From: Rhea pennata
Lineage: Eukaryota; Chordata; Aves; Rheiformes; Rheidae
NCBI RefSeq assembly: GCF_028389875.1
Contig: NC_084678.1
Span: 17,204,899-17,268,898 of the forward strand
Length of the DNA: 64,000 bases
Reading direction: 5' to 3'
The position numbers and the translations under genes are program-made. The notes beneath the pieces are model-generated. The model made no database searches. It worked only from the letters and a program-made list of their open reading frames with translations, and had not been told where the DNA came from. Below, one piece after another: positions 1-54,520 of the stretch (the first letter of the stretch is position 1; every line of letters starts with the position of its first letter).

Positions 1-2440
1 GAGCGAGCGCGGCTCGCGAGCCTGCGCGAGCGAACGCCCGGGGCATCCTCCTCCTCCTTTTTCATTTTAGGAGGAAGAAAAAAACCACGGAAATATCTTC
101 TAGAATAAGTAACTGCTATTGCACTGCTGATATTTAGGGCTTCCAGCATAACAAATGGAGCTTCAGCTTCATTAGGTACCATGCCAACTTAATCCAAGAC
201 ATCCAGTACAGAAAGAGCTTAAATTAGTTTAGCTGATGTTAACTTGTAACAAACAACACGCTAACGCACGGACGGGAAAAGCGACCTTCGGCCAGCCGGC
301 GAGGAGCAGCAGCGGGAGCAGCCGAGCGGGACGTGCCCCGGGAAGAGGGGACGGGGCAGCCGCCCGTGTCGGGCGGCAGCTCCCCGCGGCGCGGCATGGC
401 ACGGCACGGCACGGCCCTGCAAACACCCGCGCGGGAACCCGGCGCTCGCTCGCGTCTTACCTGCCCGCTCGCCCCGGGCGCTGCTGTTGCTGTAGCCACC
501 GCGGCGGCACCGCGAGCACCTTGTAGCCAGGCAGGAGGCGGCGCCCAGCCGCGTCCTGATGGGGAGAGGCCCCCGGCTGCAACGAGCCGCAGGTGCTTCG
601 TTAAGGCCCCGGCGAACACGCTGTGACGGGCAGAGCAGGGACGAGCTGCGGGGAGGCCGCCGTCGCGCCAGCCGGGGCCGGCTCACGCCCCTGACGCCCC
701 TCGAAGGGCTTTCGCGGGGTGCTGCAGCCCCGACTGCTTCGTGGCGCCCTCCGGGCGAGGGAGGGCGGCCGCCCCGGCGCGGGCGGGCGGGGGGGAGCGC
801 GGGGGCACCCGACCGGCGCCGAAAACGGGGCAACTCGGCCGGGCTTCCTTAACGCCGTGTGCACGTTCCCCGACGGGGGAATTCCTAGCAGGCTGTGTCA
901 GAGCAGGAAAGGTGGTTTATATCCTGTGCCGAGGCCGGGGCCCGACCTGGAGGCGGTGGGAATTCGGGGGCGGACGGAGGGACTGCGGGATTCGGGACGA
1001 AACCGCTGACGCGGTGAGAAAAGCAGGCCGGGGAGGGCTGGGAGGCGACGGGCGCTGGCAGGGCGCCGCGGCGCTGGCGCCCGCAGCCCGGGCCCCTGCT
1101 CGGGAGGGCGTTTGCTCAGGTGCCGCCGGGGCTCGGGAGCCGGCGCTGACGGCTCGGCCCTCCTGGGAACCGGGTTAATTAAGAGGAGAAGCCGGAGCGG
1201 GACGATGCTGCGGAAGCCCTCGGAGCCCCCTCTGCAGCCCTGCGAGGACCACGCCGGGCGAGGAGTGACACCAGCTTGATTTTCTTTTGCTGCTTTCTTT
1301 TTTGTTTCTTTTTTTATAATCCCCTCAAAGTTCTTTGCTGATAGCAAATTGTTATCATGAAAGCGCATCCAGCGTTGCGACGGCAGATAACGCTCCGCTC
1401 GCTCCCGGGCCCGGCCGCTCCAGCTCGCCGCTGCCTGATAAACTCGCACGGCAGCTGCAGATGAAAACACAAGCGCCAGCGCTCAGGGATTTATCACGTT
1501 AAGCTATCTCAGCCCATCGCTTCCTGCTCGTCAGCGCTCTCGCTGCGGGCGCTGGCACCGCCGCGGGACGCTGAAGTCCAGCCTGCGCGGGGGCAGCTGC
1601 TCCGCGGGACGTGTTCTCGCCGCAGAGGCGGCAGCAGCAGGCGCCGGGGCCGGCGGAGCCGCCCCAGCCCCGCGCGGGGCCGGCCGCGGGGCCGGGCTCG
1701 GGCGCGAGCGCCGCCGCCACCGCGCTCGATCGCCCGCTGTTAGCAAAAGTGCCGAAAGATAGCAGCGTTGCTGGCAGCGGCGGCTTCGATAGAGGTTGTT
1801 TGTGAAAGCGCCGGGTGCGAGGCGGCGCGGCGGGAACGGAAAGCGTGCCGCGGCCGGGCTGCCGCGGGCGAGCTCGGCCCAGGCGGGCTCCGCGCGCTCC
1901 CGGCCTCGGGGCGCCCCGCGCGTGCCCGCCCGGGGGGCCGCGCACGTCCCCGCCGCCTGCCTCGGCGCTCGCTGCCCTCCGGGGACTGACCGCGCTGGCC
2001 CTGCCGCCGGGAACTCTTGCAAAATTGCTTCGGCGAGGCTTTTGCAATGTTTTATCATCAGTTTTTTTTTTTTTTTTTTTTTAAACAGTCCAAAGGGCAA
2101 CAAAAAGCACAAGGATTCATTCCCGCCCCCGACACCGTGCCCACGGTGCCCGCGTTGGTCCCCGGGTCTCTCCGCGCCGCGAAGCGCTGCCGCTCCGGGG
2201 CTCGGCCTCGCGGGCCGCGGGGCTGGCGCGGGGCTGGCGCGGGGCGGGGGCCGGGGCCGGGGGCCGCGCGGCGGTGCCGGGGCGCCCGAGGGGCCGGGCG
2301 GGGCGTGCGAGGCCGAGGAAGCATTGCCGGGGAGCATCTGTGCGCGGTGGGGACCTGCGGCGCCTGAGCTGAGATGCGTGGCGGTGCCAGCAGATACCTG
2401 CTAAGCGGAGGAGCGTGCACTAGCGTGCGGGAAGCCCATT
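1..2440. other. GC-rich flank without a supported gene
   Basis: This stretch is CpG-rich with a few AT-rich islands, for example 60-250 and 1290-1350, and a T-run at about 2060-2082. The open frames in it have biased Arg/Pro/Ala/Gly composition and resemble no protein I know, so I treat them as products of base composition. A good minus-strand splice donor (CAG then GTAAGA) lies at 455-463, so a first exon of a leftward gene is possible. Nothing else supports a gene here. Confidence 0.5.
393..416. repeat. short GGCAC pentamer repeat
   Basis: About four tandem copies of GGCAC follow a GGCAT unit. The same pentamer, on the opposite strand as GTGCC, recurs at 10189-10226 just upstream of the plus-strand SIRP-like gene. 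Confidence 0.6.
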
Positions 2441-2455
2441 TTGCAAGTGCAAGCA

Positions 2456-2785
2456 CCCGTGTGTGCATACGTGAGTGTGCATGTGTGTGCAGGCACCTGT
2501 GTGTGCATACATGTGTGTGCAGGCACCTGTGCATGTGTACATGTGTGCATGTGCATATGTGCAGTCACCTGCATGTGCATACATGTATGTGCATGTGTGT
2601 GCATGCTCCTGCGCATGGGTGCATGTACATGTGTGTGCATGCACCTGAGTGTGCATACATGTGTGTGCGTGTGTCTATGCATGTGTGTGCATGCACCTGT
2701 ATGTGCATACACATGTGTGTGCATGCATGTGTGTGCACATACTTGTGTGTGCATACATGTGTGTGTGCACGCGTGTGCAGCAGCA
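2456..2785. repeat. TG/CA-rich minisatellite
   Basis: The sequence is an irregular array of GTGTGCAT and CACCTGTGTG words with a loose period near 30 bases. It is alternating purine-pyrimidine over most of its length, a composition known to favour Z-DNA. Long Cys/His/Val or Thr/His open frames across it on both strands are products of the repeat. Confidence 0.8.
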
Positions 2786-3089
2786 TTCAGCCCCCCGAGC
2801 CAGAGCTCTGGGCCCAAACGGGGCCGCTGGCCCGGGCCGCCATGGGACCCGCAGGGCCCTCGCCGCCGCCGCCGGGTGCTTGGCGAGGAGATCGCCCTGC
2901 GTCTCGGGCTGCTGTGCCCGGATAAAAAGCGTTTTTGTCCCTTGGCCCGCGCACAAGTGCCGCTGGCTGGCATGTGCGCTGGGGCGCAGCGAGAGCCTCC
3001 CCGGGGCTCGCTCGGCGGCTCGCTGCGCCCGTCGCGCCGGGGAGGCGGCAGGGAGGCCGCGGGGGCCGGTGGCAAAGCGATTGCCCCGC

Positions 3090-3310
3090 AGCGCGCGCGA
3101 CGGAGACAAATTCAATCGTCTCTTGCTCGGATGAAACGCTCGAGCGAGCCTCATGCTGCAGCCCTCCAGCAGCAGCTCCTGACCGCGAGCGCTAACGACA
3201 TCCACCCAATTAGCTGCTGCGAACTCCGCGTCGCCCGGAGGATTGGCAGATGAAACCATCATCGCGAGGCGCGAGCAGTTAATGCTGCTAATTAGCCGTC
3301 CCGCGAATCC
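3090..3310. promoter_or_regulatory. AT-rich island with homeodomain-type core sites
   Basis: Within very GC-rich flanks this block carries CAATTAGC near 3208-3214, then TTAATGCTGCTAATTAGC near 3279-3295. TAATTA-type cores are the known binding sites of homeodomain factors. It reads like a conserved non-coding element, but conservation cannot be judged from one sequence. The regulatory role is inference. Confidence 0.3.
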
Positions 3311-3529
3311 TCACCCAAACGCTACCCCTTCCCCACGCGCAGGCGCCGGAGCCGTGCCGGGCTCCCGCGGCGGCGGCGGCGGCGGTTTCCCACGCGGCCG
3401 GGGTGGGGGGGTCCCCGTTCCCCGCGGCCGCCCGCTCGCCGGCCCCTTCCCGGCGCGGCGCTCGCCCCGCTCCTCCGCGCTCCTCCGGCCGGGGCCGCCC
3501 GCGGCCTCGCTCCTCCGCTCCTGGAAACC

Positions 3530-3670
3530 AGAGATGTTTACCGAGAATTCGCCTGGCCCGGGGATATGTTATTTTTACGCGTTGCTATAGTTACCGATAC
3601 CATTATAAAATTAAGCCTGAACCTCGTGGAAGAAATGGATCTGTCAGAAGCAATTATTTAAAGGAGCGAG
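3530..3670. promoter_or_regulatory. AT-rich island in CpG-rich DNA
   Basis: A moderately AT-rich segment with ATTATAAAATTAAG and CAATTATTTAAAGG words sits between GC-rich blocks. It has no coding features. It could be an enhancer or a core promoter (the TATAAAA-like word is near 3604), but nothing around it fixes either role. Confidence 0.25.
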
Positions 3671-4093
3671 CTGTTTATCCGGCGGCCGGCGCGGGGAGCC
3701 CCCGGAGCCGCCGGCGGCAGCCGCGGGGCCGCGCCAGCCGGCCGGGCTGAGGCGGCGCTTTCAGCCCTCTCCTCGGCTTCCTCCCGCAGCTTCTGGTTTT
3801 CCCATTCACCCGGCTCGCGAAATATTTTTTCCTTTCCCTCGCACTTCTCGTCAGAGGGGCAGTTGTGCCGGGCTCGGCGCGGCTGCCAGCTCCCGGGGCC
3901 GGCGGCCAAGCGGAGCGCGGCGTTAAGGTCGCGCCGCGCGCCCGGCGGGCAGCGCGCCCGGCTCGGCGCCCCGGCGCGGCTCGGCGCCCCGCGGGAAGCA
4001 GAGCCGGCGGCGTTCCCACGGGCCGGCCTCAGCTCCCGCCTCGTCCCGGGCCGCTGCCGAAAGCCCCTTTGCACCCGGCGGGGCGGGGGGGGG

Positions 4094-4142
4094 GAAACCA
4101 AAGTGAAGTAAAAGTTTCCAAAACTGGTGCGAGTTTGGTTTC
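4094..4142. repeat. 9-bp perfect inverted repeat
   Basis: GAAACCAAA at 4094-4102 is repeated in inverted form as TTTGGTTTC at 4134-4142, with a 31-base spacer that contains AGTTTCCAAAACT, itself nearly symmetric. It could be a protein-binding element or chance. No gene is attached to it. Confidence 0.5.
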
Positions 4143-4369
4143 GCCTCCCTCGTCCTGCTGACGCCGGGGGTTTCGTGCGAGCGGGGCCGGCCAGCGGGCA
4201 GGAGTCGCGGCGGCGGAGCTGCAGCGCCCTCGGCGCAGCCTCCCGGGAGCCGCCCGAGAAGCCGCGGGCAGGTGCCGCAGGAGCGGAGCCCCTCGCGCCG
4301 CCTCCCGCGCCGCGGCGCCTCGCTCCCCACGCGTGGCTTTTCGCTCAAGCTGTGCTTGCGGGGCTGGAA

Positions 4370-4590
4370 AAATATCTGTTGGGCTGGAAAGAGCTGAGCC
4401 CTCGCTACGTCGGGAAACCAGGGGGAATAATAACGCCGCAAGCGAGGCCACAGCACAAAAGCAGTTCCTATGACAACCCCAAATCCCCAAACTGTTTATC
4501 CTCTTTAATAAAAATCTACAATAACCGTGAAGCCGGGGAATAAGATTCAATAAATACAACATGAAATAAATCAGTAACAGCACAAAGCGC
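4370..4590. promoter_or_regulatory. AT-rich island, possible non-coding element
   Basis: About 200 bases of AT-rich DNA (AATATCTGTTGGGC, CTTTAATAAAAATC, TTCAATAAATACAAC) are embedded in a region of very high GC. No open frame or splice pattern points to an exon. It could be a conserved regulatory element or a 3' end of an unseen transcript, since AATAAA words are present. Confidence 0.25.
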
Positions 4591-4882
4591 GTAAGCGTTT
4601 TGCTTCCGCTCCGTCCCTTGCCTCCCGGAGAAAACGCCGCCCTGGTAAAGGGGCCCGCTCCCGGCCGGCGGCGACCTCGGGACGGCCCGCGGGACGCCAG
4701 CGCGGGCCCGGGTGATGCCACGCGGCCCGGCGTGGGGCCTGCAGGGCTTCTCCTGGGGGCAGCGGAAGGGTCCCTGGGACCCTCTCTGCCCCCCCGCAGA
4801 GCATCGCCGCCGTTCCTCCAGCGCCCGCGCGGAGCCTTGCCGGTGCCTCCGGACACCGGTGCTGCTCCCCGTCAGTGCCCTG

Positions 4883-5697
4883 GCACCGGGAACCCTGTGG
4901 CACTGCGGGGTCCCCATGGTGTTGCAGGGCCCCTCTGGCATCTCAGAGTCCCTGTGGCATTGCAGGGTCCCCGTGGCACCGCAGGGTCCCGATGGCACTG
5001 CAGGGTCCCTGTGGCACAGCAGGATGTTTGTAGCATTGCAGGGTCCCTGTGGCATGACAGGGTCCCCGGAGCACTGCAGGGTCCCTGTGGCATGGCAGGA
5101 TGTTTGTGGCATTGCAGGGTCCCCATGGCACCACAGGGTCCCGATGGCACTGCAGGGTTCCCGTGGCATTGCAGGGTCCCTGTGGCACCACAGGATCCCC
5201 GGAGCACTGCAGGGTCCCTGTGGCACAGCAGGATGTTTGTAGCATTGCAGGGTCCCTGCGGCACTGCAGGGTCCCTGGAGCACTGCAGGGTCCCTGTGGC
5301 ATGGCAGGATGTTTGTGGCATTGCAGGGTCCCCGTTGCACCGCAGGGTCCCCGTTGCACCGCAGGGTCCCTGTGGCATGGCAGGATGTTTGTGGCATTGC
5401 AGGGTCCCCGTGGCACCGCAGGGTTCCTGAGGCTCTCCAGGGTGCCAGGGCACTGCACGGTCCCCTGGCACTGCAGGTTACCCGTGGCACCGCAGGGTCC
5501 CCACGGCATGACAGGGTCCCTGTGGCATGACAGGGTCCCTGCAGCAGTGCAGGGTCCCCATGGCACCGCAGGGTCCCCGTGGCATCTCAGTGTCCCTGTG
5601 GCACCGCAGGGTCCCCGTGGCACCGCAGGGTCCCCGTGGCATCTCAGTGTCCCCGTGGCACCGCAGGGTCCGAATGGCACCGCAGGGTCCTGTTGCT
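4883..5697. repeat. 19-bp minisatellite, about 42 copies
   Basis: The array repeats a 19-base unit close to GCAGGGTCCCCGTGGCACC, with a recurrent variant GCAGGATGTTTGTGGCATT spaced through it. Variants occur in mixed order, indicating an old, diverging array. Three units make 57 bases, so all six frames stay open for long distances and give false protein predictions on both strands. Confidence 0.92.
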
Positions 5698-7271
5698 CCA
5701 GCCAGCACAAGGCCGGTGGCCACGTGGATGGTGCCGAGGCGCGGAGGGACCCGCCGGCGCGCGCGGAGCCGCCTCCCGGGGCCGGGCTCCCGGCTGCCTC
5801 GGGAGCTGCCGCGGCGAGGGGGACGGGGATGGGGATGGGGGGCAGCACGGGTGCGGCCCGGGGGGGGGGGATCCGAGCGTGGGGGCATCCCAGACAGACA
5901 CCAGCGCCCGAGGACGGAGGCGGCCGCCAGAGCAGGCTGGAGCAGCGCGGCGCCCCGGCCGGCGGGCTGGCCGCTCCGCTCGCTCTGCCTCGGCTCCGGC
6001 ACGAGCTCCGGCTCCTCGGCCCCTGCCCGGCGCGTGCTGCCGGCCGTGCCGCCCCCCCCCCCTTTTCCGGGGAAGTTTCCCGCCCGCAGGGGTTGCGAAG
6101 GGTAAATTGGGCTGCCCCGGGCCCGGCCGCGTCCCCCCCGCTCGCAGTGCCGCGCGGAGCCGCGCTCGCCCGCACCCCCCGGCCGCGCTCCTACCTGCCG
6201 GCCGCGCTCGGCGCTCGCTCGGGCTTTCCCCGCCGGCGCGGCCCGGGCTGCCGGCTTAAAGGATTTTCCCACAATAACCACCAAATCCCTCTCCTGGGCG
6301 GTAAGCCGCGGACCTGGCCCTTCCCTAGGTGCACGGCGCTCCCGGCGCTCCGCGGCCGCTCGCTCGCTCGCCACCTCGCATATGCTTTTCTCAAAGTGGA
6401 TTTTCCCCCTCCCAGCCCAGCCCGATGCTTAAAAAGCCCTGAAATCCCTTCAAATCTGATTTCATTCCCCCTCGCCCGCGAGGTCTCTCTCCCCGCTCCG
6501 GGTCTCACCCACGTGTTTTACGTACGCTGCTCGCCGTCCCCGCGCGGGCTCCTCGCGCCGCGGCTGTCCCGGCGTCCTCGGCTCCCGCGTCCCGCCGGCG
6601 GGGACGGGGCCGCCGGCGCCGCCCGCGGCCGGGGCGCTGGGTGCTGCGCGCCGGGCCCTGAGCCGCTGCCGAAAAGGAAATGTCCCCAAACTGTCCCCAA
6701 GCCTTGAGCCGCGTCCCCCGGGGCGGCTCATGCAAACGCGTTTCCGAAGCGGCTCCCCCCCGCCCCAGCAGCGAGGTGCCCGCGCGGAGGAGCGCGGCCC
6801 CGCGCCCCACGCACGGGCGCGGATGTTGCGTGCTACCTTGTTTCACTTCTCTATTTCGATTTCGCAGAAAAAAAGAAAAAGCCCCAGATAAAGGAAATTG
6901 GAGGCTGGCATCTGCAAACAGCCTTCAAGGGCTCCGGCGGCGGCCGAAGCGCGAGGTTCCTCCGCCGGGACGCGCGCGCTCAGCTGACGCCTTCGGCGGG
7001 CGCGCGGTGCCGGGCGCTGCGGGGGCCCGCGAGCGCTCGGAGCTGCCCGGCGGCTCCGGCGGCCGCTCCCGGCGGCGCGGGTGCCCAGACCTCCGCGTGC
7101 TTTACGGGCCGCGAAGCGCGCGCCGGCGGGCCGCTGAGCGCGGCGGGCCGGGAGCGTGGCGGGCTGCGCCCCGCTAGCGCCTCTGCTTCTTCTTTCCCAC
7201 GCCTCGCAGGAAGAGCCCCGCTTCCGCCCCCAGGACGGGGCTGGCGGCCGGGTCCGCGGCGGTGCCCCGCT
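5698..7271. other. CpG-rich DNA between minisatellite and receptor gene
   Basis: Very GC-rich sequence with poly-C and poly-G runs (for example near 5855-5870 and 6050-6062). A minus-strand donor-like sequence (CAG then GTAGGA) lies at 6189-6197. The part just left of 7272 should hold the 3' UTR of the minus-strand SIRP-like gene, but I see no AATAAA on that strand close by. I recognise no coding exon. Confidence 0.4.
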
Positions 7272-9103
7272 TTACCGGGCCGCTCCGCGGATGCTGGCGT
7301 ACTCGGAGGCGCCGGGGCCGGGAGCCCGGCGCGGGGCCGCGGGCAGGGGCTGCAGGACAGCGTAGTGAAGGTCCGCGTCGGCCGCGCCGTGCCGCTGCGA
7401 GGGCGAGAGCCGGAGCCGCGCGTGGGCCAGGGCGCCAGGAGGACGGCGCCGGCGCGGCCGCCCCTCTCCCGCGAGCCCCCCCGGGAGCCTCGCGAAACGC
7501 CCGCCGGCGCCCGCCGCCCCGCGCTCCTACCTGCTCGGGCGCAGCGGAGGCCTCCGGGTCCGGCCCGCCGGGGCTGGGGGAGAAGAAGCGTCGTTAGAGC
7601 GGCCAGGAGCAGATCCCGCTCGCCGGGCGGCACGGTGCCGCGCGGACGCGCCCCGGCTTTCCGCCCTGCAGCGGCGCTGGGCTCGGCGGCGCCGCGCCGC
7701 CCGGCCCTGCCCGCGTGCGAACTCCCCGGCTCGGCAGCCCGTGCCGGAGGCGACGCAGCCCCCGACCGAAAGCTCTGTCTTTCCCTGGGGGAAAAGCTCC
7801 GGCTTTTCCAGAGCGGGCGGGAGGGCGGACAAGGCTCGCGGCGGGGAGCGGAGGCGGCGGGTACCCACCTGGGGCTGCTGGCGCTGCCACCTGCAAAGCG
7901 GAGGAGAGCAGGGTGAGCGGGGCGCGCGCGGCCCCCCGCGCCCGCCCGCCCGCCCGCCGGCGCCCTGCTCACCTCCCCTCGTCCGCCGGTAGACGCAGAG
8001 GGTGACGAAGGCGACGAGGAGGAGGACGGCGAGCACGGCGGCCGGCACGGCCACGCCGGCAAACGGGGCGCTCTCTGCGGGGACGCGGGGCTCAGCGCCG
8101 GCGCGCGGCGCCCGCGGGGCCGGGCCGGCGCGCCGCCCGCTGCCCCGACTCACCGTGCACCGACACGGTCGTGCCGGGGCCCCGCTGGTAAACCTGCTCG
8201 CCGGAGCCCGCCTGGAGCTTCACGCAGTAATAGGTGCCGGCGTCCTCGGGGCGGGCGTCGCTGATGCGGATGGTGAAGTCCGTGTTGGAGCCGTTCGCCG
8301 CCCGCCTGACCCGGGGGAAGCGGCCTTTCTGATCGTAGACGGTCTGATTGCCGCCGCCCGAGAGCTTCAGCCACTTGACGGGTCCCGCCGGAGCATCCGC
8401 GGAGACCTCGCAGCGCAGCGTGAGCGCCTGCCCCACGGACACGGCCGCCGCCGCCGGCTGCCACAGCTGGAAGCGCCCGTCCGCCCCGGCGCCGGCACCT
8501 GTGGGCGACGCCGGGTGACGGGCCCAAGGCCGGCGCCGCCCGGGGGCCCTGCGGCACCGTGCCCGCGCGGGGCCGCCGGACCCCGAGGACGACCCGCCGG
8601 CAGCCAGGCCCAAAGCGGGGAAGGGTTCAGGCGGGAGCTGCCCGCCGCCGCGGGGTCCCCGAGGCTGCAGCGGTGCAGAAAGAGGCCAGTTCCCGGGAGG
8701 AAAAGCCCGTAAGCGTTAGCAGGACTCTCGCAGCGCACCAGGCGTTCCCCGCGGCGGGGGCCAGGCTCCCCGGCTGCTCCGAGCCCCGGCCGCCCCCCCG
8801 GCCCCGGGGCGTCGCGGCGCCTGCACGCCGAGCACCGCTTCCCGGCACGGCGCGGAGATGCTGCAGCCGGGGATCGCCAGGACGCCGGGGAAAAAAGAAA
8901 TCCCGCGCTTGCCACGGCCCTGGGGACCGCGCGCAGCCCCCGGCGGCGGCTCGGGCCGCGGCCGCGGGAGCAGGAGCGGTCCGTCGGGACGGACGGGGCC
9001 GAGCCGCGGCGCCGCCGCCGCCCTACTCACCGGCGAGCGGGGCCAGGCAGAGGCTGAGCAGCCGGACGAGGAGCGGAGCGGCGGCGGCCGCCGGCAGAGC
9101 CAT
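7272..9103 (-). CDS. SIRP-like inhibitory receptor with one V domain and two ITIMs
   Basis: Six coding exons on the minus strand: 9031-9103, 8154-8498, 7973-8074, 7869-7890, 7531-7573 and 7272-7394. All have GT-AG borders and matching phases, giving 235 residues. Exon 1 encodes a signal peptide. Exon 2 encodes one V-set Ig domain (LRC, VKWLK, EDAGTYYCVK) that closely resembles SIRP-alpha domain 1. Exon 3 encodes a membrane segment and an Arg-rich stop-transfer. Exon 4 encodes GGSASSPR-like residues, matching the GSTSSTR micro-exon of SIRPA. The last exon carries LHYAVL and SEYASI, which fit the ITIM pattern and resemble the SIRPA tail. The intron between V and membrane exons is only 79 bases, so no constant domains fit. 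Two sequons (NQT, NGS) lie in the V domain. By family, it should recruit SHP-1/SHP-2; the ligand is unknown, and CD47 is only a guess. Confidence 0.88.
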
Positions 9104-9649
9104 CGGCGCCGCCGAAAGTTTGAGCTCCGACTTCGGGAGAAGGAAAACGAGAAGCTGCGCAGGAAGCGGAGGCGAGCGGCCGCGGTGCTGTTAACGCTTG
9201 TGGCGCCCGCCCGGCCGCGCGCCGGGGCTTAACCCCCGCGACGCAGCGCCCGGGGCCGCAGCGCCGAGCTGCCCGCCCGGGGCTGGCTGCCGGGGCCGGG
9301 CTGCGCCTCCGCTGCGGGCGCTGGGGCCCGCAGGCGCGGCGGGGCGCGAGCAAGGCGCGCGCTCTGGGGAAGGCTGCGCGTTTCGGAGCTGCGCGCGAGG
9401 TTCTCCAGCCTGCGGGGAGGGGCGGCGCGGGGAGGCGAAGCTCGGACGCCGCCGCCGCCGCCGCCGCCGCGCAGGCCCCGGGCACGGGGCCAGGGGGCTG
9501 GGAACGCCGCGCTGCGCCTCCCTTCCCGCTCTGAACGACGGGGACGGTCCCGTGCGGCTGGGGCGCAGCGTGCTGGGCTGGCGGCGCAGGGTTCGTGCTC
9601 CCGCTGCCCGTGGCGGTGCAGACATCGGGAGCAGCGGGCATAGGACAGC

Positions 9650-10012
9650 CCGTGGGGCTGCAAACCCTCCGCGGGGCTGTGAACCCTCCATGGGGCTGCA
9701 AACCCTCCGCAGGGCTGCAAACCCTCCGCGGGGCTGTGAACCCTCCATGGGGCTGCAAACCCTCCGCAGGGCTGCAAACCCTCCGCGGGGCTGTGAACCC
9801 TCCATGGGGCTGCAAACCCTCCGCAGGGCTGCAAACCCTCCGCGGGGCTGTGAACCCTCCATGGGGCTGCAAACCCTCCGCGGGGCTGTGAACCCTCCGC
9901 GGGGCTGTGAACCTGCTGTTGGGCTGCAAACCCTCTACAGGGCTGTAAACCCTCCACGGGGCTGCAAACCTGCCGTGGAGCTGCAAACGTGTCGCAGGGC
10001 TGCAAACCCGCC
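9650..10012. repeat. 19-bp minisatellite between the two receptors, about 19 copies
   Basis: The monomer is close to GGGCTGCAAACCCTCCGCA. In the left two thirds, three monomer types (CAAACCCTCCGCA, CAAACCCTCCGCG, TGAACCCTCCATG) alternate to make a 57-base higher-order unit. The right end is more diverged. The period equals that of the array at 4883-5697, although the core sequence differs. Confidence 0.92.
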
Positions 10013-10188
10013 GCAGCACCACCTCGCAGGACAGCAGCTCAGCGGCCTTCAGGGCCGGCAAGGATATGGTCCCGTGATGCACCGTGGCAGAAATGGTTTG
10101 GAAATCCTCTGGGCTTATGTGCATGAGAGAGGAACTTGTCCAGCTGCCGTGCCTTTCCTTCCCCATTTGCAACGAGTCCACCTCAGAG

Positions 10189-10226
10189 CCGTGCCGTGCC
10201 GTGCCGTGCCATGCCGTGCCGTGCCG
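10189..10226 (+). repeat. GTGCC pentamer repeat in likely 5' UTR
   Basis: Seven to eight tandem pentamers, GTGCC with one ATGCC variant, end 26 bases before the start codon of the plus-strand receptor. They would lie in its 5' leader or core promoter. Confidence 0.75.
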
Positions 10227-10252
10227 GTGGGCAGCGGGACGCAGCTCTCAGC

Positions 10253-12824
10253 ATGGCTCCGGCAGCGCGGGCGCCGGCTCTCGCCTGCCTGCTGCTGCTG
10301 CTGCTCGGCGGAGCCCCAGGTGAGTGCAGGGCACGGGGCCGCCCGGGCGCCGCGCTCTCCCGCGCCCTTCCCTCGCTGCTGCCAGGACCGTCCTGCCCCC
10401 AGCCTGAGCACACGCCGGGCTCTTCCCTCCCCTTCTCTTCTTGCTCCCTGCTTCCATCCCCGGTGGGAGAGTTGGCTTCACTCCGGCCGGCCCCGGGGAG
10501 CCCCTATCCCCGCGGGCCGTGCAGCCCCGGGGGTCCCCGCGCGGGTGGTGCCCGTGCCGCGGGACCCTCGCAGCCCCCCTGCTCTCGCTGTGCAGGCGCC
10601 GGTGCTCAGGGGACCTGGAGCTTGTTTGCACAGGCAAGGGGACATTCGGGCACACTAGCCGGCCAGGCACTGCGTGTTTCTATTTCCACTGCAGAGCACA
10701 ACACAGTCGGCTGGATTTGGAAGCTATGTTATTGAGATGCTTCAAAGGGAACCACTTTCCTCTACTGGTGACAAGTAGCAATAACTTTTGCTTAACTGGT
10801 GTAGGCTTCAGCTTCTAACTGTGCTCTGATAGAGCAAATCAGCCCTGGAGTTCAAAGGAAATTAGAGCGATTAAGTGCAGAAAATGTGGTATTATATCCT
10901 CATCTGTGAAGAGAGCTTGCTTTAGGAGAGTTTTGTGTTTTATAACCTTGTTCCCTCCTGATTGATCAAGAAGGATGGCCCATGACATGGGACATAGCAG
11001 GGCATGCCAGTACGATTCAGCAGCTGGGATTTGTTTGATGTTTTGGCTGTACGGAGTACTAGGCGCTGTCATTCAGTAAAGATGCAGCTGTCTCAACCTC
11101 GCTGCTGAGGCCTGCAGTCGAACTGAGCTCTGTGCCTGCTCATATAAGCTGAACCTCTACCACAGGCTCACCTGCTTTGGAGTGCTGGCCCGGGACTTTG
11201 GGCCAGTCCTGCTGCCCGCAATCCCTGCTAACAACCTTGTGCATGCCTGTAAATTTGGCCCCGCTGCACTGCAGTAGGCCCGAGCATGGCAGTGGGAGCT
11301 TTGCAGGGCTCTGATCCTCCAGGTGACCCTGCTGAGCAGGGGGGTTGGCCTAGATGATCTCCAGAGGTCCCTTCCAACCTTGCTGGTTCTATGCTGGAGA
11401 GGGCTCTGAAGGCAAGCGAAGAGCCTGACACTTGGGTGGGCAATTACTGAGGGAGAATTCTACTGAGATCAGGGCCACAGAGCCCCTCCTGCGTTTGGGG
11501 GGTACGTAACGGGTTTTGGTTTTGCTCCAGGTGCCGATGCTCAGAACGAGCTGCAGCAGCCCCAGCGGGAGGTGACAGTATCCGTGGGGCAGACGCTCAC
11601 CCTGAACTGCACCGTGTCTGGAGCCACTGTAGTAGGACCTGTGAAGTGGCTGAAGGCTGAGGACAAGGTGAATCGGACCGTTTATGAAGATAAAGGCTCC
11701 TTCTCCCGCGTAACGAGGGTGGTGAATCCGTCCAACACGGATTACAGCATCCGCATCAGCAACGTTCAAATCGAGGATGCTGGGACCTATTACTGTGTGA
11801 AGTTTCAGAAAGGAGAGCAGGATAAGGTGTATATGTCGGGACAGGGCACGAACGTGCTTGTGCATGGTGAGTGGCGCTCTCAGCCCTGTCGCTCCCTGAG
11901 CAGCTCCCACCTGGGAACCAGCCCTGCCGAGCACAGCTGCCCCGTCGTGGCCAGCTGTGGTCCTGGGATGAGCGGGGGCCAGGGGCGGGCCCCTGCGTAC
12001 CCCTCCCCTGCCCAGGCCACGTTCCCTGCTGACAACAGGAGCAAGCAGGTGCCCCAGGCAGATCAGGGGATCCCCCCGGAGAGCTGCCTGGCAGCCAGGG
12101 GCACAGGCTGTGCAAAGCCGAGTAACCAGTCCACCGCGAACAAGGGTGAGCGTGAGCTTGCCGCTGGCCGTGGAGGCGCGGTCCCTGAGGAGGCGGTTGT
12201 TTGCTCTTGTCCTCCTGAGAAAGCTCAGTCCCACCAGAACCCTGCACGGGACGATAAGAGCCTGCCCAGCTTCAAACGTGCCCCGCTTCCTGCTCTCTCA
12301 GCCTCATCCTGAGCTGCTCCTTGCCCTGCTCCCGTTACGACGCAGGCTAGGCAAGATCTGGCACCCGTGCAGGATGCAGCCGTCGGGAGCAGAGCTCCCA
12401 CCAGGCTGAGCCCTTCTCCCAAGCGTGCCCTTCATCCTGCTGTCCTAAGAGCAGCACAGAGCCCGCCCCGTGCTCACTAAGGCCTGGCTCCTCAGGGCCC
12501 GCAGGCTTGTTGAATTCAAGAGGTGGCAACCAGGCCTTGTGAGTGCTGAGTCCTGGGCCTGGGCGCCGTGGCTCTAACCTGGCAGGACCAGCCCATCCCA
12601 CCCACCGCCAGCAGATTTAAGGACGTAAAACCTGTTTCCGTATGGGGGTGGATGCTGCTGGGACCAGAATTCCCATCCCTAGCAGGCAAGGTGTCACACA
12701 CCCCCCTCTCCCCACCGCAGATCAGCACCTCTCGTCCCTCCTCGGCCTCCTGATCGGGCTCCTGCTGGAGAAGGGGGTCATCGGCCTCGTCCTCTTCTAC
12801 CTCTTCAAGCGCAGGATGGTGTGA
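10253..12824 (+). CDS. SIRP-like activating receptor with one V domain and a membrane lysine
   Basis: Three coding exons, 10253-10319, 11531-11866 and 12721-12824, all phase 1, give about 168 residues. Exon 1 encodes a signal peptide with a Leu run. Exon 2 encodes a V-set domain with LNC, GPVKWLK, EDAGTYYCVKF and GQGT, much like SIRP-alpha domain 1 and the neighbouring minus-strand receptor; NCT and NRT are possible glycosylation sites. Exon 3 encodes a hydrophobic segment interrupted by adjacent Glu-Lys (LLEKGVIGL), then FKRRMV and the stop. A membrane lysine with a tail of a few residues is the known pattern of SIRP-beta receptors that signal through DAP12 (TYROBP). The 854-base intron before the membrane exon contains no constant-domain exon that I can see. 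The adaptor and ligand are inferred, not shown. Confidence 0.87.
11320..11393 (+). mobile_element. CR1 LINE 3' end fragment
   Basis: The text GGTTGGCCTAGATGATCTCC followed by AGAGGTCCCTTCCAACC and a TTCTATG tail is the classic 3' end of an avian CR1 element in sense orientation. Only the last 75 bases or so are recognisable. It lies in the first intron of the plus-strand receptor gene. Confidence 0.85.
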
Positions 12825-12949: not shown

Positions 12950-13950
12950 TCACATCCTCGCATCGTCCCGCCCGGCCCTCCCGCAGCGGGAGGCGACGCT
13001 CGCGCGGCCGCGGCCCCCCGGACGGACATCGGCCCGCGCGCGGCCCCCGGGCCGGGCGTGCCGGCGGGAAGGGCCGCGCTCCGTGGTCTTTGCTGTTTCT
13101 CCCTGGAAATAAACGGCACGGAAACGCACGCGGCGGCTCGGGGTGCTCGGCTGCGGCCCGCGCCGTCGGCCCCCAGCCCTTCCCGGCTCCCTCCGCCGCG
13201 CTGGGCGGCCCTGGGCGGGAAGGGGGACGCTGCGTTCCCCGGGCAGGGCGGCTCCCGCACGGATCTGCCCGGCATGGACCGGGACGGCAGGTCCGGGACC
13301 TATCCAGACGGGCGGGCGCCGCCGGATTCGGCTGCCATCCGAGGCGGGAAACGCCGGCTCCCTTCGGAGCCGCGGGCTCCGCTCCTCGGCCCGCGCGCGA
13401 GGCCGAAGCCGCGAGGATGCTGGTGCCGGGGGCGGGGGGGAGCTGCCTCGGGGGCCGCAGGCCTTAGGGCGCCTCCCGTCCCCGCTCCGCCGCCGCCGCC
13501 GCCGCGCCGCTTCGCCCCGCACCCACCCCCGCGGCGGTGCTCGGCGCTGCGCACCACGCTGCGCACGCGCGCCGCCAAGCCGCCAGGGGCCGCTGTGGCG
13601 CAGCGCCGCTGTTTCCGCCCGGCGCGGTTTGTGCGGGCGCGCGGGGCGGGGCCAGGCGGGGCGGGGCGGGGCCAGGCGGGGCGGGGGCACCCGGCGGGCT
13701 TTGGGCGCTGCACCGCGGCAAGATGGCGGACAGGGAGGAGGCGCTGAGGGAGTTCGTGGCCGTGACCGGCGTCGAGGAGGAGCGAGCGCGCTTCTTCCTC
13801 GAGTCCGCCGGCTGGGACCTGCAGGTACCCCGCGCCGCCGCGGGACCCACCGCCGGCCCCGCCGCCCGGGCCGGCCCCGCCGCCCGCAGGCCCCAGGCCC
13901 GACCCGGCTCGGCCCGGCCGGGCCCCGCCGCCGCCGCCCCCTTCGCTGGG
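12950..13950 (+). promoter_or_regulatory. CpG island and promoter of NSFL1C
   Basis: The island covers the intergenic gap, exon 1 and the start of intron 1. GGGGCGGGGC-type Sp1 words are repeated at 13644-13690. CAAGATGGCGGA spans the start codon at 13720-13731; this matches the YY1/TISU consensus in 11 of 12 positions. TATA is absent, as usual for housekeeping promoters. Confidence 0.75.
13108..13113 (+). terminator. polyadenylation signal of the plus-strand SIRP-like gene
   Basis: AATAAA lies 284 bases after the stop codon and about 600 bases before the NSFL1C start. It is the first canonical signal downstream and gives a short 3' UTR. Confidence 0.7.
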
Positions 13951-35300: not shown

Positions 35301-38300
35301 TCTGAGAGCTCCTGCTAGGAGATGGTAGTCTGTGGCAAGGTTTGCAGCTTATCACTCTGCTGTGCTGAGTGAGTCTTGCAAACACTTAGCCTGATAGAGT
35401 GGCCAGCCTGAGTGTGCCGTGCAAAGAGGTAAAATGGCTGTTTCTGCACTGAGACATCAGACTCGCTTCAGGTGCAGCTCAGCTGAGCATAACAGCACTA
35501 TCCCCCTGTACCTCCCACCCTAATCTTGTTTGTTCTGGCAGTTCCAGTGCAGACCTTTCTGTCTCTCTTCTCAGGGCCCCTCAGCCCCCTGGGGAAGGTT
35601 GAGCTGCCCTTCAGTAGCTGCCTGAGGATGATCATGGAACACAAGCCCTACACCCAGCTGCTGTGTGGCTTCCTCTTTGCATCCCTGGCCTTCCAGGTGT
35701 GAGACCTGCCTCAGCAGGAGGAGAGCTTGGGAGATGAGATGCTCCAGGCAGCTTCTCTAGTGATACACAGTGAATGTGGGACCCCAGCCGTGAATGTCTC
35801 CATGTTCCCTTCCTAGATTGCACAGGGGATCTTCGCTGTCTTCTGTACTCATGCTGCAGGTCTGGCCGGGAAGTTCCAGCATTTGGTGCTTATCATGTTG
35901 GTAAGAGAGCCCAAGAGAGACATTCTGTCCCTGCCTGCTTTGGCAGATGCCTGGATTGCCACAGCCCTACAGGATCGTGACAGCTCAGGCCACACTTGGG
36001 GCACTGGATTTTGTGGAGTCAGCACTGCTGCTTCTTCCTATCAGCAAAGATGTCACCCAGGCAGATACTGGCGGAAACTGGAAGGCCTTGCTGAGAGTCC
36101 TCTCTGGTTCTCTCCTCAGGTCACAGCTTCCCTCTCTATTCCATTCTGGCAATGGCTTTTGGGGAAATTTGGGAAGAAAACGGCCGTGTCCTTAGGCCTG
36201 GTGGTAAGTTTGCCCTTGGTCTTGGCTACAAACTAAGAAGCCCTGTGGGCAGTGTCCTGCTCCCAGCTACTCATGCTGTCTAAGGGGAAGAGCTGGCTGC
36301 TAAACAGCGTGACCAGCCATGCAGGCGTTTTATTTCTCCTAGCCAGCCAGCTCGGAGGCAGGTGGCCCTGAGCAGTGTCTTCCATGCTATAGGTGAACAG
36401 GAATAGGGTGGTAGCTGATCACAGTTCTGCATTTCAATTTGTCTGGCCACTGCTCATATCAGTGACCACAGCTTTGCAGAGCTTTGCAGTAATGTTTGGG
36501 GAGGCTAAGGGCCTGTCTGTGAGATGGTGGATGAGTGAGGATGTTTGCAGTATCGCCCAACCTGGCTTATGCTCTTGGACTCCATGGCTGCTGGGTCTTG
36601 TGAGCAGTGCGTGGTTAGATGCTGTCCTAATGCACTGATCTCATGTGCACTCCCAGCAGCCTCTTTCCTGCTCCAGGATCTTGCATGCTCAATGCAGGTG
36701 ACCTGAGTTCTGCCAGCCAGCTCTGTGTGGGGAGGGAAGTAAGGGCCAGGGTACCATGCTGGGAATGAGCCTGCTCATCAAACACACTTGAGCTGCTGCC
36801 TGGCTATGCAAGTCAGCAAGAAAGTCCCATTTGGCTTTGGAGCATTAGGTACTCAAATTCCTTTGCAGATCTGCCTCGAGTTTGCCTTTCTCACAGACAT
36901 TTGGGGCACCCATAGCAAATGCAGCTTTCTAGTTTAACCATTCAGCCCCATTGCCCTCTATAACAGGCCTTTCTTTACCACGAGGAAGACTTTGATTCCA
37001 ATATCTTGTTGCCCTCTGTCCAGGGTCTTCAGGCTACACTGCACAGGGGAAGGAAGCAGCCTTTGTGCCACGAATCAGCTGTTCAGACCTTTCCTAGAGC
37101 CCCAGAACATAACATCCAGGGTCCGTGTACTGGTGGTGGTGGGGTGTCCTCTGGCCTTGCCCCTCTGAGCAGGGTGATGCAGGGCGGCTGGGCAGATGTG
37201 AGGTTTTTGCTATTGTCTATGAATGTGTGGGGAGGAGGAGCCCAGCCTTTGGTACACCAGGCCAGTGTAAGATGTCCGTGAGCAGCAGAAGGGGCTCATA
37301 TGCTCTTCTTTCTCTTCTCTACCCCAGCTGATTATCCCAGCCCTCATAGGGATCACCCAGGTGAGGCACAATTTCCTGGCCTTCATCTTCCTGATGATCA
37401 TGGCAGGCTGCAGCATGGCTGTGCTCTATCTGTTACCGTGGTGAGTGGAGGCATCTCAAAGATGGTTGTTAGGTAGCGAGGAGGGGAAAGTTATGGGGAA
37501 AACGCCAGGCCAGGGCTTCACTGCAACAGCTATTGGGATGCACAGGGACATGGGGCTGGGAAGAGATGTGGATGTGATCCTGGTAAGTGATGGTCTTGCT
37601 GGAGCATAATTCAGTCTGCATTCAAGACTCCCTTCAGCAGTGGGATGCTGTGCAAAATACTGTTTTTTTTCCTGCCTTTCTCAAAGTAGCTGCTACATGC
37701 TGTCTGTGAAACATTCTGTCCTGATTGCCTAAGGCAAAGGACATGCTAAACAGTCTCCAGAGGGGAGTTCAAGTGGTTTCCACCTCTTTCTACTGGTTGA
37801 AGAGGCCTGGGAGTAGTTGCAGCTGAGTTTGGTCAGTGCTGGAGTGGGTTTCATGAATGCCTCTGTGGGGCTGTCTGTCCCCAGGTCCATGCTGCCAGAT
37901 GCAGTGGATGATTTCAGGCTGAGGAACCCCAACTGCCTGAACCTGGAGGCTCTCTTCTACTCATTTTATGTCATCTTCAACAAGTTTGCAGGTGGTCTTG
38001 CCGTGGGGATATCGACACTGAGTTTACAGTAAGCCCCAAATGCTATCCTCCCTATTTTGCCAGCCTAGCATGGATCTTTTTTACTGCTCCTTTCTGGGTT
38101 GTCTGATGAGAGATGCTGTAATGGGTTGCAGGTATATTCAAATTTGTCTTTCCAACATCTACTGAGAGCAAGAGGAGCAGGAGGGAATGGGATTTCTATG
38201 AAGTTGGGCCTTTGATTCCAGCCTCTAGAGGAGACCCACAGAAGTGCCAGCTTGCCTTTTGGCAATGGCTCCGTGGGGCTGGGGAAAGTGTGACCATTCT

Positions 38301-40673
38301 TCATGACTAAAAGCCTGCCAGTGTTCTCCAGTGGAGGTCCCTAGGCTGACAGCAGTGTCTTTCATCTGTGTTCCTCTAGTTTTGCAGGTTACCGTGCTGG
38401 AGACTGCACACACAACCCCTCTGTCATCCTTGCCCTACAGCTGCTCATGGCCCCAGTCCCAATAAGTCTGCTGCTTGTTGCTATAATCATCTTTTCCCTC
38501 TACCCCATCAATCAGAAGAGGAGGAAACAGATGAAAATGGAGATGGAGGCAATCAGGTAAATTCAGGCTCCCTCAAAGAGCCAGGTCTTCTCTTATTTCT
38601 GGATGCCCGCACTGCAACTAGCCCAAGGCAGAAACGCTGCACAGGGAGGGACTGCGTATGTCCAGCCTGGTTCCCTGCGCTTGTGCTATGATCCCTTCCA
38701 GAGGCACGTTCTCTAAGGGCTTGAGGGAGTTCTGGGGACTGCAGGCTTCACATCGGATCTCAAGAGTGCTCGTGTTCCTTTTACCAGGCATCACATGCAG
38801 CATGGCAGCGCAGAGTAAAACAAGCACCGAACTGGGTGAGTTCCTGCAGGAAGAACCTAGACTTGCTGTGTGCTGTCAGGATGTGCTGCTGTCATGGAAA
38901 GTCTCCGTTTCCTGTTGTTTCCTGTTTCCGTGTTCCAAGGGGCTGTTTGTACCCCGGGTCCCCTCCCTCTCCTGGCAGGCATGCACAGGTCAGAGAGGGG
39001 ATCCTGCGCAGCAGCCCCAGCCCTGCCGCCTCGCTAGAGAGCTGCCTTCTCCAGGCTTGGCCTCACTGGTCCTTTGGCAGGTCCCGACAGACCTGTGCTC
39101 CTCTTTGGGGAGAGACAGCCCTGCCGGGGAGGAAGGGGCCCAAGCAAGCCTCGGGACAGTGCTCGCAAACAAGACGGGACGCGGAGGTGTCACTTAGCCA
39201 TGTGGGAAAACTTTTGCCTGAAGTATGCTGGGACTGTTTTAGAGGGAAACTGCAGCATTCTTGGCAGATTTTTTGAAAAGTATTTTCCTAGATAAGTGTG
39301 TGTCTATGTGCTTACGCTGTCCTTTCACAGGGGAAAGTTCAGAATTTCTTTGAAAAAGGGTGAAGTTTAAGCCAGTAGCGTAAAAGAAGAGTACGTGCAG
39401 AAATGATCACACTTGGCAGCACTGTAGCAAAAGCCAGCTATGTCTCTCTGCCTTGGTCTTGTTAGCTGAGTAACTTACAGGAAATGAGGAATTTTTCGGT
39501 AGAAGAGTTTGCAGGACTGGACTGAGCTGACTCAGTTCAGGCAGTCTTGGGTGTTTCTGGCAGCTTGTCCTGATTTTTGCCATGCCAGGAGGTTAGAGCA
39601 GAAATGTCACATGAATTTCCGGGATAGTTGAGTTGCTTTTAAATCATAGCCCACAGCTAGATCTACTACATCAGCATCTTGTGAAAGCTTCCCAGCCTCC
39701 TCACATCTCTCCTGGCAATGGTGAGGGGGCAGCGGGGGGAAGATAGGAGAAATAAGCCAGCTTGTTGCTGGTAGCACTGAGCTGTGTTCAGCCCTGTGCA
39801 GAGGAAAAGAGTGAGGCTGGTTATTTTTAGGGCTAGAGCTGTGTCTGACCGTTGGTTGACCTTGCAGCACTCCAGTCTGGTGCACATTGGCAGGATCTGA
39901 GCAAATTACTCCCCAGTTGTGCACTAACTTAATTTGAACCCTTCAGTCTTGTGATGCCACTTTAAGAAGAATGGGGAAGATCATGTGTCAGAGTATCTGC
40001 AGGATCATCACATCAATCGAGATTCGGCGTGATTTCTCAGCAGCACGGAGGGCTTCCCTTTTTTGCTGAGGCGTAAAGGATGTTCCTTAGGAGTGCCTGA
40101 CTAAGGCTGTGGTCGGTGCTGCAACACACTGCCCTCTGCCACTGTGCATTGCTTTCAGCCTTGCTTCCTGTGGATTTATGAACGAACAAGTACCTTTGAA
40201 CACTGAGGAAACACTCTGAGAGCTCGGAGTTTTAAGTCCTACAGAAGACATGAATTATGTTCAGAGGCATGCGCTCTTTGGGACAGAGGGGTGGACTTCC
40301 TCTGGAGCTTCTACTCTGCCGCACGTGCTGTGAACGGGCCATAGACCACTCTAGAGTGGGACCTGTCCCACTGCAGAGCAGGGAAACACTTCTGGTGTTT
40401 GTGGTGTCTTCTAGCCCTGCTATTATCCACGATGGTACTTCTGTATATCAAAAAAAGTCCTGTATATTTCTTACACTATTAAATCTGAATATTCACACTT
40501 TTTCCTCTTGGCATTTATTTTGCAAGTTCTACTAGCAAATGATCCACAAAGTAGGAAGAAATGTCTGTAGAATTTGTTTGTTCTGAGGCTGTTTTACTTT
40601 CTCCAGGGTTGAGACACTGAAATCTGACCTGAGACCTTTTGTGGTTCTGGACCAGCTGGACCCTGAGCAGTGA
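32383..40673 (+). CDS. MFSD2-family lysolipid transporter, MFSD2A-like (first exon not found)
   Basis: Thirteen exons: 32383-32476, 32790-32914, 33518-33650, 34063-34141, 34647-34804, 34928-35018, 35542-35696, 35817-35900, 36120-36203, 37328-37440, 37885-38028, 38380-38556 and 40607-40673. All phases agree and give 500 residues plus an unseen start. Family landmarks of MFSD2A (sodium-dependent lysophosphatidylcholine symporter) are present: KVCYAAGGIPYQ, GRAWDAVTDP with both Asp residues, YSSLTMF, GIQGQIVG, the FGKKTA loop, LPDAVDDF, and a membrane Lys in FNKFAGG. The luminal loop has NGT and NTS sequons and a Cys; a second Cys in GDCTHNP could pair with it. There are about twelve membrane segments. 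The tail lacks the Ser-rich end of human MFSD2A. By homology it moves lysolipids or related lipids across the plasma membrane; MFSD2B-like substrates are an alternative. Confidence 0.9.
33019..33050 (+). repeat. intronic 32-bp repeat, copy 1
   Basis: This copy lies 105 bases after the exon ending at 32914. It matches the copy at 34289-34320 in 29 of 32 bases, sharing GGGGTCCATATGTCAT and GAAAGAGGAG. The surrounding sequence is not alike. Confidence 0.75.
34289..34320 (+). repeat. intronic 32-bp repeat, copy 2
   Basis: This copy lies 148 bases after the exon ending at 34141 of the same transporter gene, in the same orientation as copy 1 at 33019-33050. It may be part of a dispersed repeat family or a duplicated intronic element. 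Confidence 0.75.

Positions 40674-42300: not shown

Positions 42301-54520
<12,220 letters not shown>

What the first reader, a model, noticed from the sequence alone, without database searches (positions are those of the whole stretch)
7272..12824. Head-to-head pair of single-V SIRP-like receptors with opposite signalling parts
Seen: two genes start 1149 bases apart and diverge. Each has one signal exon, one V exon and one membrane exon, all phase 1. The V domains are clear relatives (GPVKWLK, SNTD, EDAGTYYCVK in both). One has a tail with LHYAVL and SEYASI; the other has a membrane Glu-Lys and a six-residue tail. Known: SIRP-alpha inhibits via ITIMs and SIRP-beta activates through DAP12. Inference: this is a minimal paired-receptor unit, compact and possibly co-regulated, lacking the C1 domains of mammalian SIRPs. 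That architecture may be close to an ancestral state or a bird-specific reduction, and I do not know a description of it.
Basis: partly seen in the sequence, partly recalled or inferred. Interest (0 to 1): 0.85.

Follow-up and report, generated by a model that had tools for sequence, protein, structure and literature searches.

The report
Rhea SIRP inhibitory–activating receptor pair
Two neighbouring rhea genes encode an off-switch and an on-switch immune receptor of the SIRP family; the family is known, but here the two receptors' binding domains have drifted apart instead of staying alike as in many other birds.

Summary
Confirmed. Two divergent single-V SIRP genes lie at 7272-12824 of a Rhea pennata window. 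The minus-gene model equals an NCBI prediction (235 aa); the plus gene matches one over V and membrane exons. Both V domains are SIRP by sequence and predicted fold, beside NSFL1C-FKBP1A-SDCBP2-SNPH, the human SIRP neighbourhood (order recalled). The minus gene has two ITIM-like motifs; the plus gene has the Glu-Lys membrane segment of bird activating SIRPs.

The evolutionary reading needs changing. The single-V inhibitory form is widespread in birds (57 of 58 records checked carry its tail), but birds also have V-C1-C1 SIRPs, in 21 neognath species and emu on a same-length contig. The rhea activator groups with emu and tinamou genes that have C1 domains, so it most likely lost them; none was found in the window.

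Most interesting: inhibitory and C1-bearing V domains group by species in 13 of 21 neognaths; in palaeognaths they form two clades by type, 56-61% identical in rhea and emu against a neognath median of 83%. Ligands may be split. Expression, co-regulation and CD47 binding are untested.

The parts
9031..9103 (-). inhibitory gene exon 1: signal peptide
   Evidence: identical to NCBI protein P0002
8154..8498 (-). inhibitory gene exon 2: V-set domain
   Evidence: (PF07686 9.7e-13)
7973..8074 (-). inhibitory gene exon 3: uncharged membrane segment
   Evidence: helix 145-172 in the model
7869..7890 (-). inhibitory gene exon 4 (22 bases), tail
   Evidence: P0002
7531..7573 (-). inhibitory gene exon 5 (43 bases), tail
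   Evidence: P0002
7272..7394 (-). inhibitory gene exon 6: LHYAVL and SEYASI motifs, stop
   Evidence: this pair of motifs, with variants, in 57 of 58 records
9655..10014 (.). minisatellite (57/19-base unit) between the two starts
10253..10319 (+). activating gene exon 1: signal peptide
   Evidence: leader plus first mature residues 20/27 identical to Mergus
11286..11322 (+). first exon used by NCBI's model (MAVGALQGSDPP), no evident leader; probably wrong or alternative
11531..11866 (+). activating gene exon 2: V-set domain
   Evidence: (PF07686 1.5e-14)
11867..12720 (+). intron at the point where the emu relative's protein has two C1 domains; no C1 exon found
12721..12824 (+). activating gene exon 3: membrane segment with Glu-Lys, very short tail, stop
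   Evidence: 25/34 identical to emu
13108..13113 (+). AATAAA, likely poly(A) signal of the activating gene
13723..13824 (+). first exon of NSFL1C ([16 protein letters not shown]...), syntenic anchor (gene named from recalled sequence; exon end by eye)

Best explanation
The locus holds the NSFL1C-proximal end of the bird SIRP cluster: a single-V inhibitory SIRP of a kind widespread in birds and an activating SIRP whose C1 exons have been lost in the rhea line (or in this gene copy). Inferred working: the minus-strand receptor binds a ligand with its V domain, its two tail tyrosines are phosphorylated and recruit SHP-1/SHP-2, damping activation of myeloid cells. The plus-strand receptor has no tail to signal with; its membrane lysine, preceded by a glutamate, pairs with an aspartate-bearing adaptor such as DAP12 (ITAM) to activate. 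Because the V domains have been separate since early palaeognath history and differ at most positions that match the CD47-binding face of human SIRP-alpha, the two probably no longer read the same ligand.
For: Shown: exon structure; SIRP V domains by sequence and by predicted fold, whose first 46 and 44 listed PDB matches are SIRP chains; gene neighbourhood; the two-tyrosine tail in 57 of 58 records; the acid-Lys membrane segment in 41 of the 43 records of 380-440 aa first listed, the other two ending before it; emu relative P0270 with V plus two C1 domains and membrane stretch 25/34 identical; V tree with palaeognath activating clade 98/92 and inhibitory clade 100/97 (61); no C1 exon found in the window; contact positions 10/23 identical between partners in rhea and in emu. 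Inferred from the named families: myeloid expression, SHP recruitment, adaptor pairing, ligand split.
Against: Single-V genes with the same membrane segment exist in alligator and merganser (39, 46), so the rhea gene could be a surviving single-V copy. By plain identity the plus V is nearest emu (64.2%), but a barn-owl inhibitory V (61.5%) ranks just above the tinamou (61.1%) (49). The V tree has only 110 columns, and its Rhea+Tinamus fork is weak (SH-aLRT 69). The contact face changes faster than the rest in neognath pairs too (median 75% against 85% identical, 56), and the excess is not significant within rhea or emu (Fisher p 0.24 and 0.09, 70). The tinamou record is a partial model. No expression data.
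Confidence: 0.75

Rival explanations
1. The single-V activating gene is an old single-V form kept from before birds, and C1-bearing activating SIRPs are separate paralogues.
For: Single V plus Glu-Lys segment in alligator (P0063, 179 aa, no C1 family in Pfam), whose longest contig has the same length as that of a C1-bearing SIRP (P0177), and in merganser (P0066), other ducks having C1-bearing SIRPs; a lizard single-V record (P0086) has Asn-Lys instead.
Against: The rhea V domain groups with emu (V-C1-C1) and tinamou (V-C1), not with alligator, lizard or duck single-V genes; the membrane stretch is closer to emu (25/34) than to merganser (19/34). The alligator and lizard V domains sit on long branches, so their place is unsure.
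Confidence: 0.25
2. The two genes share a bidirectional promoter and are co-regulated as one unit.
For: Head-to-head, 1149 bases between start codons.
Against: CpG-rich sequence (observed/expected about 1) covers the inhibitory gene's side up to about 9.5 kb; around the activating start it is 0.6-0.7, and a 360-base minisatellite lies between. The arrangement could not be checked in other birds.
Confidence: 0.2
3. The plus gene does not activate: the Glu beside the Lys cancels it, so the receptor signals with no adaptor or acts as a decoy.
For: The acidic neighbour is not seen in the mammalian records with a membrane lysine: the residue before the lysine there is mostly Pro, else Gly, Ser, Leu, His or Thr.
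Against: Of 90 of the 287 held proteins in which a lysine lies in a membrane-like segment near the end, 54 have Glu or Asp before it; those I could name are birds, alligator and one turtle. Such conservation suggests a working segment.
Confidence: 0.1
4. One gene is a pseudogene or a modelling artefact.
For: No transcript seen here; NCBI's first exon for the plus gene lacks an evident leader.
Against: Open frames, consensus splice sites, no N in the window, and leader, V, membrane and tail sequences conserved in other birds.
Confidence: 0.05

Closest known systems
Avian single-V inhibitory SIRP ('SHPS1', 'PTPN substrate 1-like', 'SIRPD-like' predictions; emu P0003, cassowary P0006, kiwi P0004)
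   Same: One V domain, uncharged membrane segment, two-tyrosine tail; V 69-72% identical to emu, cassowary and kiwi
   Different: Rhea has LHYAVL where the other 56 records with this tail have IHYADL (50) or LHYADL (6)
Avian activating SIRP (SIRPB1-like, about 390-400 aa; emu P0270)
   Same: Same V clade as emu and tinamou, same Glu-Lys membrane segment, short tail
   Different: Emu has two C1 domains and the partial tinamou model one; rhea none
Mammalian SIRP-alpha / SIRP-beta1
   Same: V-set domain, ITIM tail versus membrane lysine, gene neighbourhood (recalled)
   Different: Mammalian SIRP-alpha has V-C1-C1 and four tail tyrosines (recalled); this tail has one pair; the bird V domains printed lack residues aligned with human 66-68; the bird lysine is preceded by Glu/Asp
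Mammalian single-V SIRP forms (SIRPA short isoforms of about 291 aa, SIRPB1-like of about 180 aa)
   Same: Single V with SIRP names and, in those of about 180 aa that I read, a membrane lysine
   Different: Several are named as isoforms, of genes that I recall to have C1 exons; here no C1 exon was found between V and membrane exons

Membership tests
SIRP family | SIRP-type V-set domain | tested here: met
   Best PDB sequence hit is SIRP for the plus V; for the minus V SIRP-beta1 is second at 2.2e-24, just below an antibody construct that sums several stretches; the first 46 and 44 fold matches are SIRPs
SIRP family | Two membrane-proximal C1 domains (mammalian SIRP-alpha, -beta1, -gamma; recalled) | tested here: not met
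   No C1 exon found in the window. None of the 57 inhibitory records lists a C1-set family (precomputed Pfam). Not treated as excluding, since single-V members such as SIRPD are accepted (recalled)
SIRP family | Chromosomal place beside NSFL1C and FKBP1A | tested here: met
   human order and most gene names recalled
Inhibitory SIRP (SIRPA type) | Tail ITIMs | tested here: met
   LHYAVL and SEYASI fit [SILV]xYxx[ILV] (recalled consensus)
Inhibitory SIRP (SIRPA type) | Binds CD47 | not testable with these tools
   Only 3 of 9 (minus) and 4 of 9 (plus) human hot-spot residues are shared (residues from PMC10304963 passages); rhea CD47 not examined
Activating SIRP (SIRPB1 type) | Basic residue in membrane, short tail | tested here: met
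   LLGLLIGLLLEKGVIGLVLFYLFKRRMV
Activating SIRP (SIRPB1 type) | Association with DAP12 | not testable with these tools
   Needs co-expression
Paired receptors | Closely similar ligand-binding domains in the two partners | tested here: not met
   55.6% in rhea, 60.6% in emu, against a median 82.7% in 24 neognath comparisons; 81.8% in the 7 of those whose C1-bearing partner has the activating segment
TREM or CD300 families | Closest V domain | tested here: not met
   No TREM or CD300 receptor chain among the 60 sequence hits listed in each or the 50 fold matches listed in each; after the SIRPs come mostly antibodies. Not compared directly

The most novel reading that the evidence does not exclude
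In ratites and tinamous the inhibitory and activating SIRPs have escaped the V-exon homogenisation seen in many other birds, and each partner has kept its own ligand face since before the palaeognath radiation. The activator is then not a copy-cat of the inhibitor but a receptor with its own ligand, a natural experiment on what the paired-receptor design needs.
Probability: 0.45. Interest if true: 0.55.

Novelty: new member of a known kind. Interest (0 to 1): 0.38.

Why it matters
Paired SIRPs are hypothesised to be decoy systems in which activating copies mimic the inhibitory receptor to punish pathogens that target it (stated in a passage of PMC5413580). A lineage in which the partners' binding domains stay distinct, next to many where they are kept alike, lets that idea be tested by binding assays. 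It also shows how C1 domains can be dropped from an activating SIRP, and gives a compact bird locus for work on the CD47 checkpoint outside mammals.

Tried and rejected
Rejected: C1 exons hidden in the window. Five C1 queries from three birds gave a best E of 0.003, against the minisatellite at 4893-5690. Rejected: a second SIRP in the left 7 kb; a bird V query had only the two known places at E under 0.2, and the four long open frames scanned there gave no Pfam family. Rejected: one clade of all single-V inhibitory V domains; AU test p 9e-06 (the group was named after seeing the tree).

Led nowhere: search of the window's own genome (not completed), so the rest of the rhea cluster left of base 1 was not seen, and whether rhea has C1-bearing SIRPs elsewhere is unknown. 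Rfam (gathering threshold) and tRNA scans: nothing. Paper searches on bird SIRPs showed, in listings and the passages that I read, no description of this pair; they cover open-licence papers only. One search on gene conversion in paired SIRPs listed two papers, neither on birds. Enrichment of differences at the contact face: not significant.

Limits: the species pairs were chosen because a single-V inhibitory record and a C1-bearing record among the best 120 of 1926 share species and longest-contig length; all others were dropped. 'Same contig' is inferred from equal length. Strigops, only, has no contig evidence. In 13 of the 24 neognath comparisons the C1-bearing record ends before its membrane segment, so its type is unknown, and in 4 it has an ITIM tail. 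Many records are partial predictions. In one search I left out P0053 (cat), P0058 (kiwi isoform with another tail) and P0059-P0063.
Full report
What is there. The window is from Rhea pennata: the minus-strand model translates to a protein identical over 235 residues to an NCBI prediction, and the plus-strand V and membrane exons to a second prediction whose longest contig has the same length, 18,738,069 bases. The two V domains are 55% identical (63 of 114 columns).

Family. Sequence search places both V domains with SIRP chains. Predicted structures (mean pLDDT 86.6 for the plus gene in NCBI's 158-aa form; 70.0 for the minus gene, whose tail is of low confidence) match SIRP chains best: ranks 1-46 and 1-44 of the 50 listed. 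The neighbours on the right are NSFL1C, an MFSD2-like transporter, FKBP1A, an SDCBP2-like gene and SNPH (the names NSFL1C, FKBP1A and SDCBP2 rest on my recall of their sequences, SNPH and the transporter family on Pfam). Apart from the transporter this is the order next to the human SIRP cluster as I recall it.

Signalling parts. The minus gene has an uncharged membrane segment and a tail with LHYAVL and SEYASI. Of 58 related records checked, 57 have this pair of motifs, most often IHYADL and SEYASI (36); the exception is a duck record of the activating kind. The plus gene ends in LLGLLIGLLLEKGVIGLVLFYLFKRRMV. Of the 43 records of 380-440 residues first listed, 41 have Glu or Asp before a membrane lysine and the other two end before that segment. 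Over all 287 proteins then held, 90 have a lysine in a membrane-like segment near the end: 54 with Glu or Asp before it, and 36 with another residue, nearly all mammalian where named. SHP recruitment and DAP12-type pairing are inferred from the mammalian family.

C1 domains. Birds do have V-C1-C1 SIRPs, some with the Glu-Lys segment and some, of about 500 residues, with a four-tyrosine tail. In 21 neognath species, and in emu, such a record has a longest contig of the same length as that of the single-V inhibitory record; in Glareola and Sagittarius that contig is only about 40 kb. The emu relative of the rhea plus gene (P0270) has two C1 domains and the partial tinamou model (P0071) one; their V domains form one clade with rhea's (98/87, 98/92), and the emu membrane stretch is 25/34 identical from the first residue of the rhea exon (emu exon borders were not seen). 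The rhea intron of 854 bases between V and membrane exons has no C1 trace. Loss of C1 exons in the rhea gene is therefore the best reading, though single-V genes with the Glu-Lys segment in alligator and merganser leave room for a retained old form.

Two modes of V evolution. In a tree of 53 bird V domains and two outgroups, inhibitory and C1-bearing V domains of the same species form one clade in 13 of 21 neognath species (11 at starred support, counting Pluvialis, where the starred fork joins one of its two C1-bearing records), are unresolved in 3 (Dromas, Burhinus, Steatornis) and are apart in 5 (Numida, Cyrtonyx, Arenaria, Thinocorus, Rostratula). A single clade of all inhibitory V domains is rejected (p-AU 9e-06; group named after the first tree). 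Within-species identity is 82.7% at the median over 24 neognath comparisons from 22 species (67.3-97.3; one, Strigops, without contig evidence), above the 71.8% between species for the same type (91 pairs of 14 records, 60.9-83.6). Taking only the 7 comparisons whose C1-bearing partner has the activating segment, the median is 81.8%. This is the mark of homogenisation by gene conversion or recent exon exchange. In palaeognaths the pattern is reversed: 55.6% (rhea) and 60.6% (emu) within species, 71.6% at the median between species for the inhibitory type (15 pairs), and two clades by type. The two galliforms (67-68%) are intermediate and also group by type.

Ligand face. At positions aligned with the human SIRP-alpha residues that touch CD47 (list from Table 1 of PMC10304963, seen as a passage; the bonds tabulated in a passage of PMC9457805 overlap with it), the two rhea partners share 10 of 23, as do the two emu partners, below all 23 neognath comparisons made there (58-96%). 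Inhibitory V domains of five palaeognaths share 14-23 of 23 with each other; the three activating ones 13 to 16 of 23-24; across types 8-12 of 23. Against the reading: the face is also the less similar part in neognath pairs (median 75% against 85%), and its excess of change over the rest is not significant in rhea (p 0.24) or emu (p 0.09). Only 3 and 4 of 9 human hot-spot residues are shared, and the bird V domains printed lack residues 66-68, so CD47 binding cannot be predicted from this.

Promoter. CpG-rich sequence covers the inhibitory side up to about 9.5 kb but not the activating start, and a minisatellite separates them. Head-to-head placement alone is weak evidence for co-regulation.

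What is known. PMC9652883 (passages read) states that putative SIRP clusters are seen in Gallus and Anolis; PMC4788293 (passages) states that chicken SIRP was characterised, citing work that includes Viertlboeck 2006, which is not held; PMC4473062 (passages) notes several bird genes co-orthologous to mammalian SIRPs. The pair is thus a new member of a known kind, already predicted by NCBI gene by gene. The divergence of the partners in palaeognaths is the part I found no description of, in the searches named in Tried and rejected.

Noticed in passing
window 37817-38557, plus strand (further exons likely upstream): Two open frames of an MFSD2-like transporter (PF13347) between NSFL1C and FKBP1A, where I recall no such gene in human.
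   Followed up: partly
window 42400-63300: FKBP1A exons (about 42.4, 53.5, 54.5 kb, plus), SDCBP2-like exons (about 59.2-60.8 kb, plus), SNPH (62063-63283, minus; PF15290 1.8e-87): gene order as I recall it for human 20p13.
   Followed up: partly
window 4893-5690, 9655-10014, 42530-42949: Three minisatellites; the first two share a 19-base period.
   Followed up: no
P0171, P0172, P0174, P0007 (plover, gull, ducks): Predicted SIRPs with two or three V domains and one Glu/Asp-Lys membrane segment at the end, with or without C1 domains: either fused gene models or real multi-V receptors.
   Followed up: partly
window 7272-7394: Rhea has Val at Tyr+2 (LHYAVL) where the other 56 records with this tail have LHYADL or IHYADL; possible change in SHP affinity.
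   Followed up: partly
window 1-7272, minus strand: The only AATAAA/ATTAAA on the inhibitory gene's strand downstream of its stop is one ATTAAA near 4509, so its poly(A) site is unclear.
   Followed up: no
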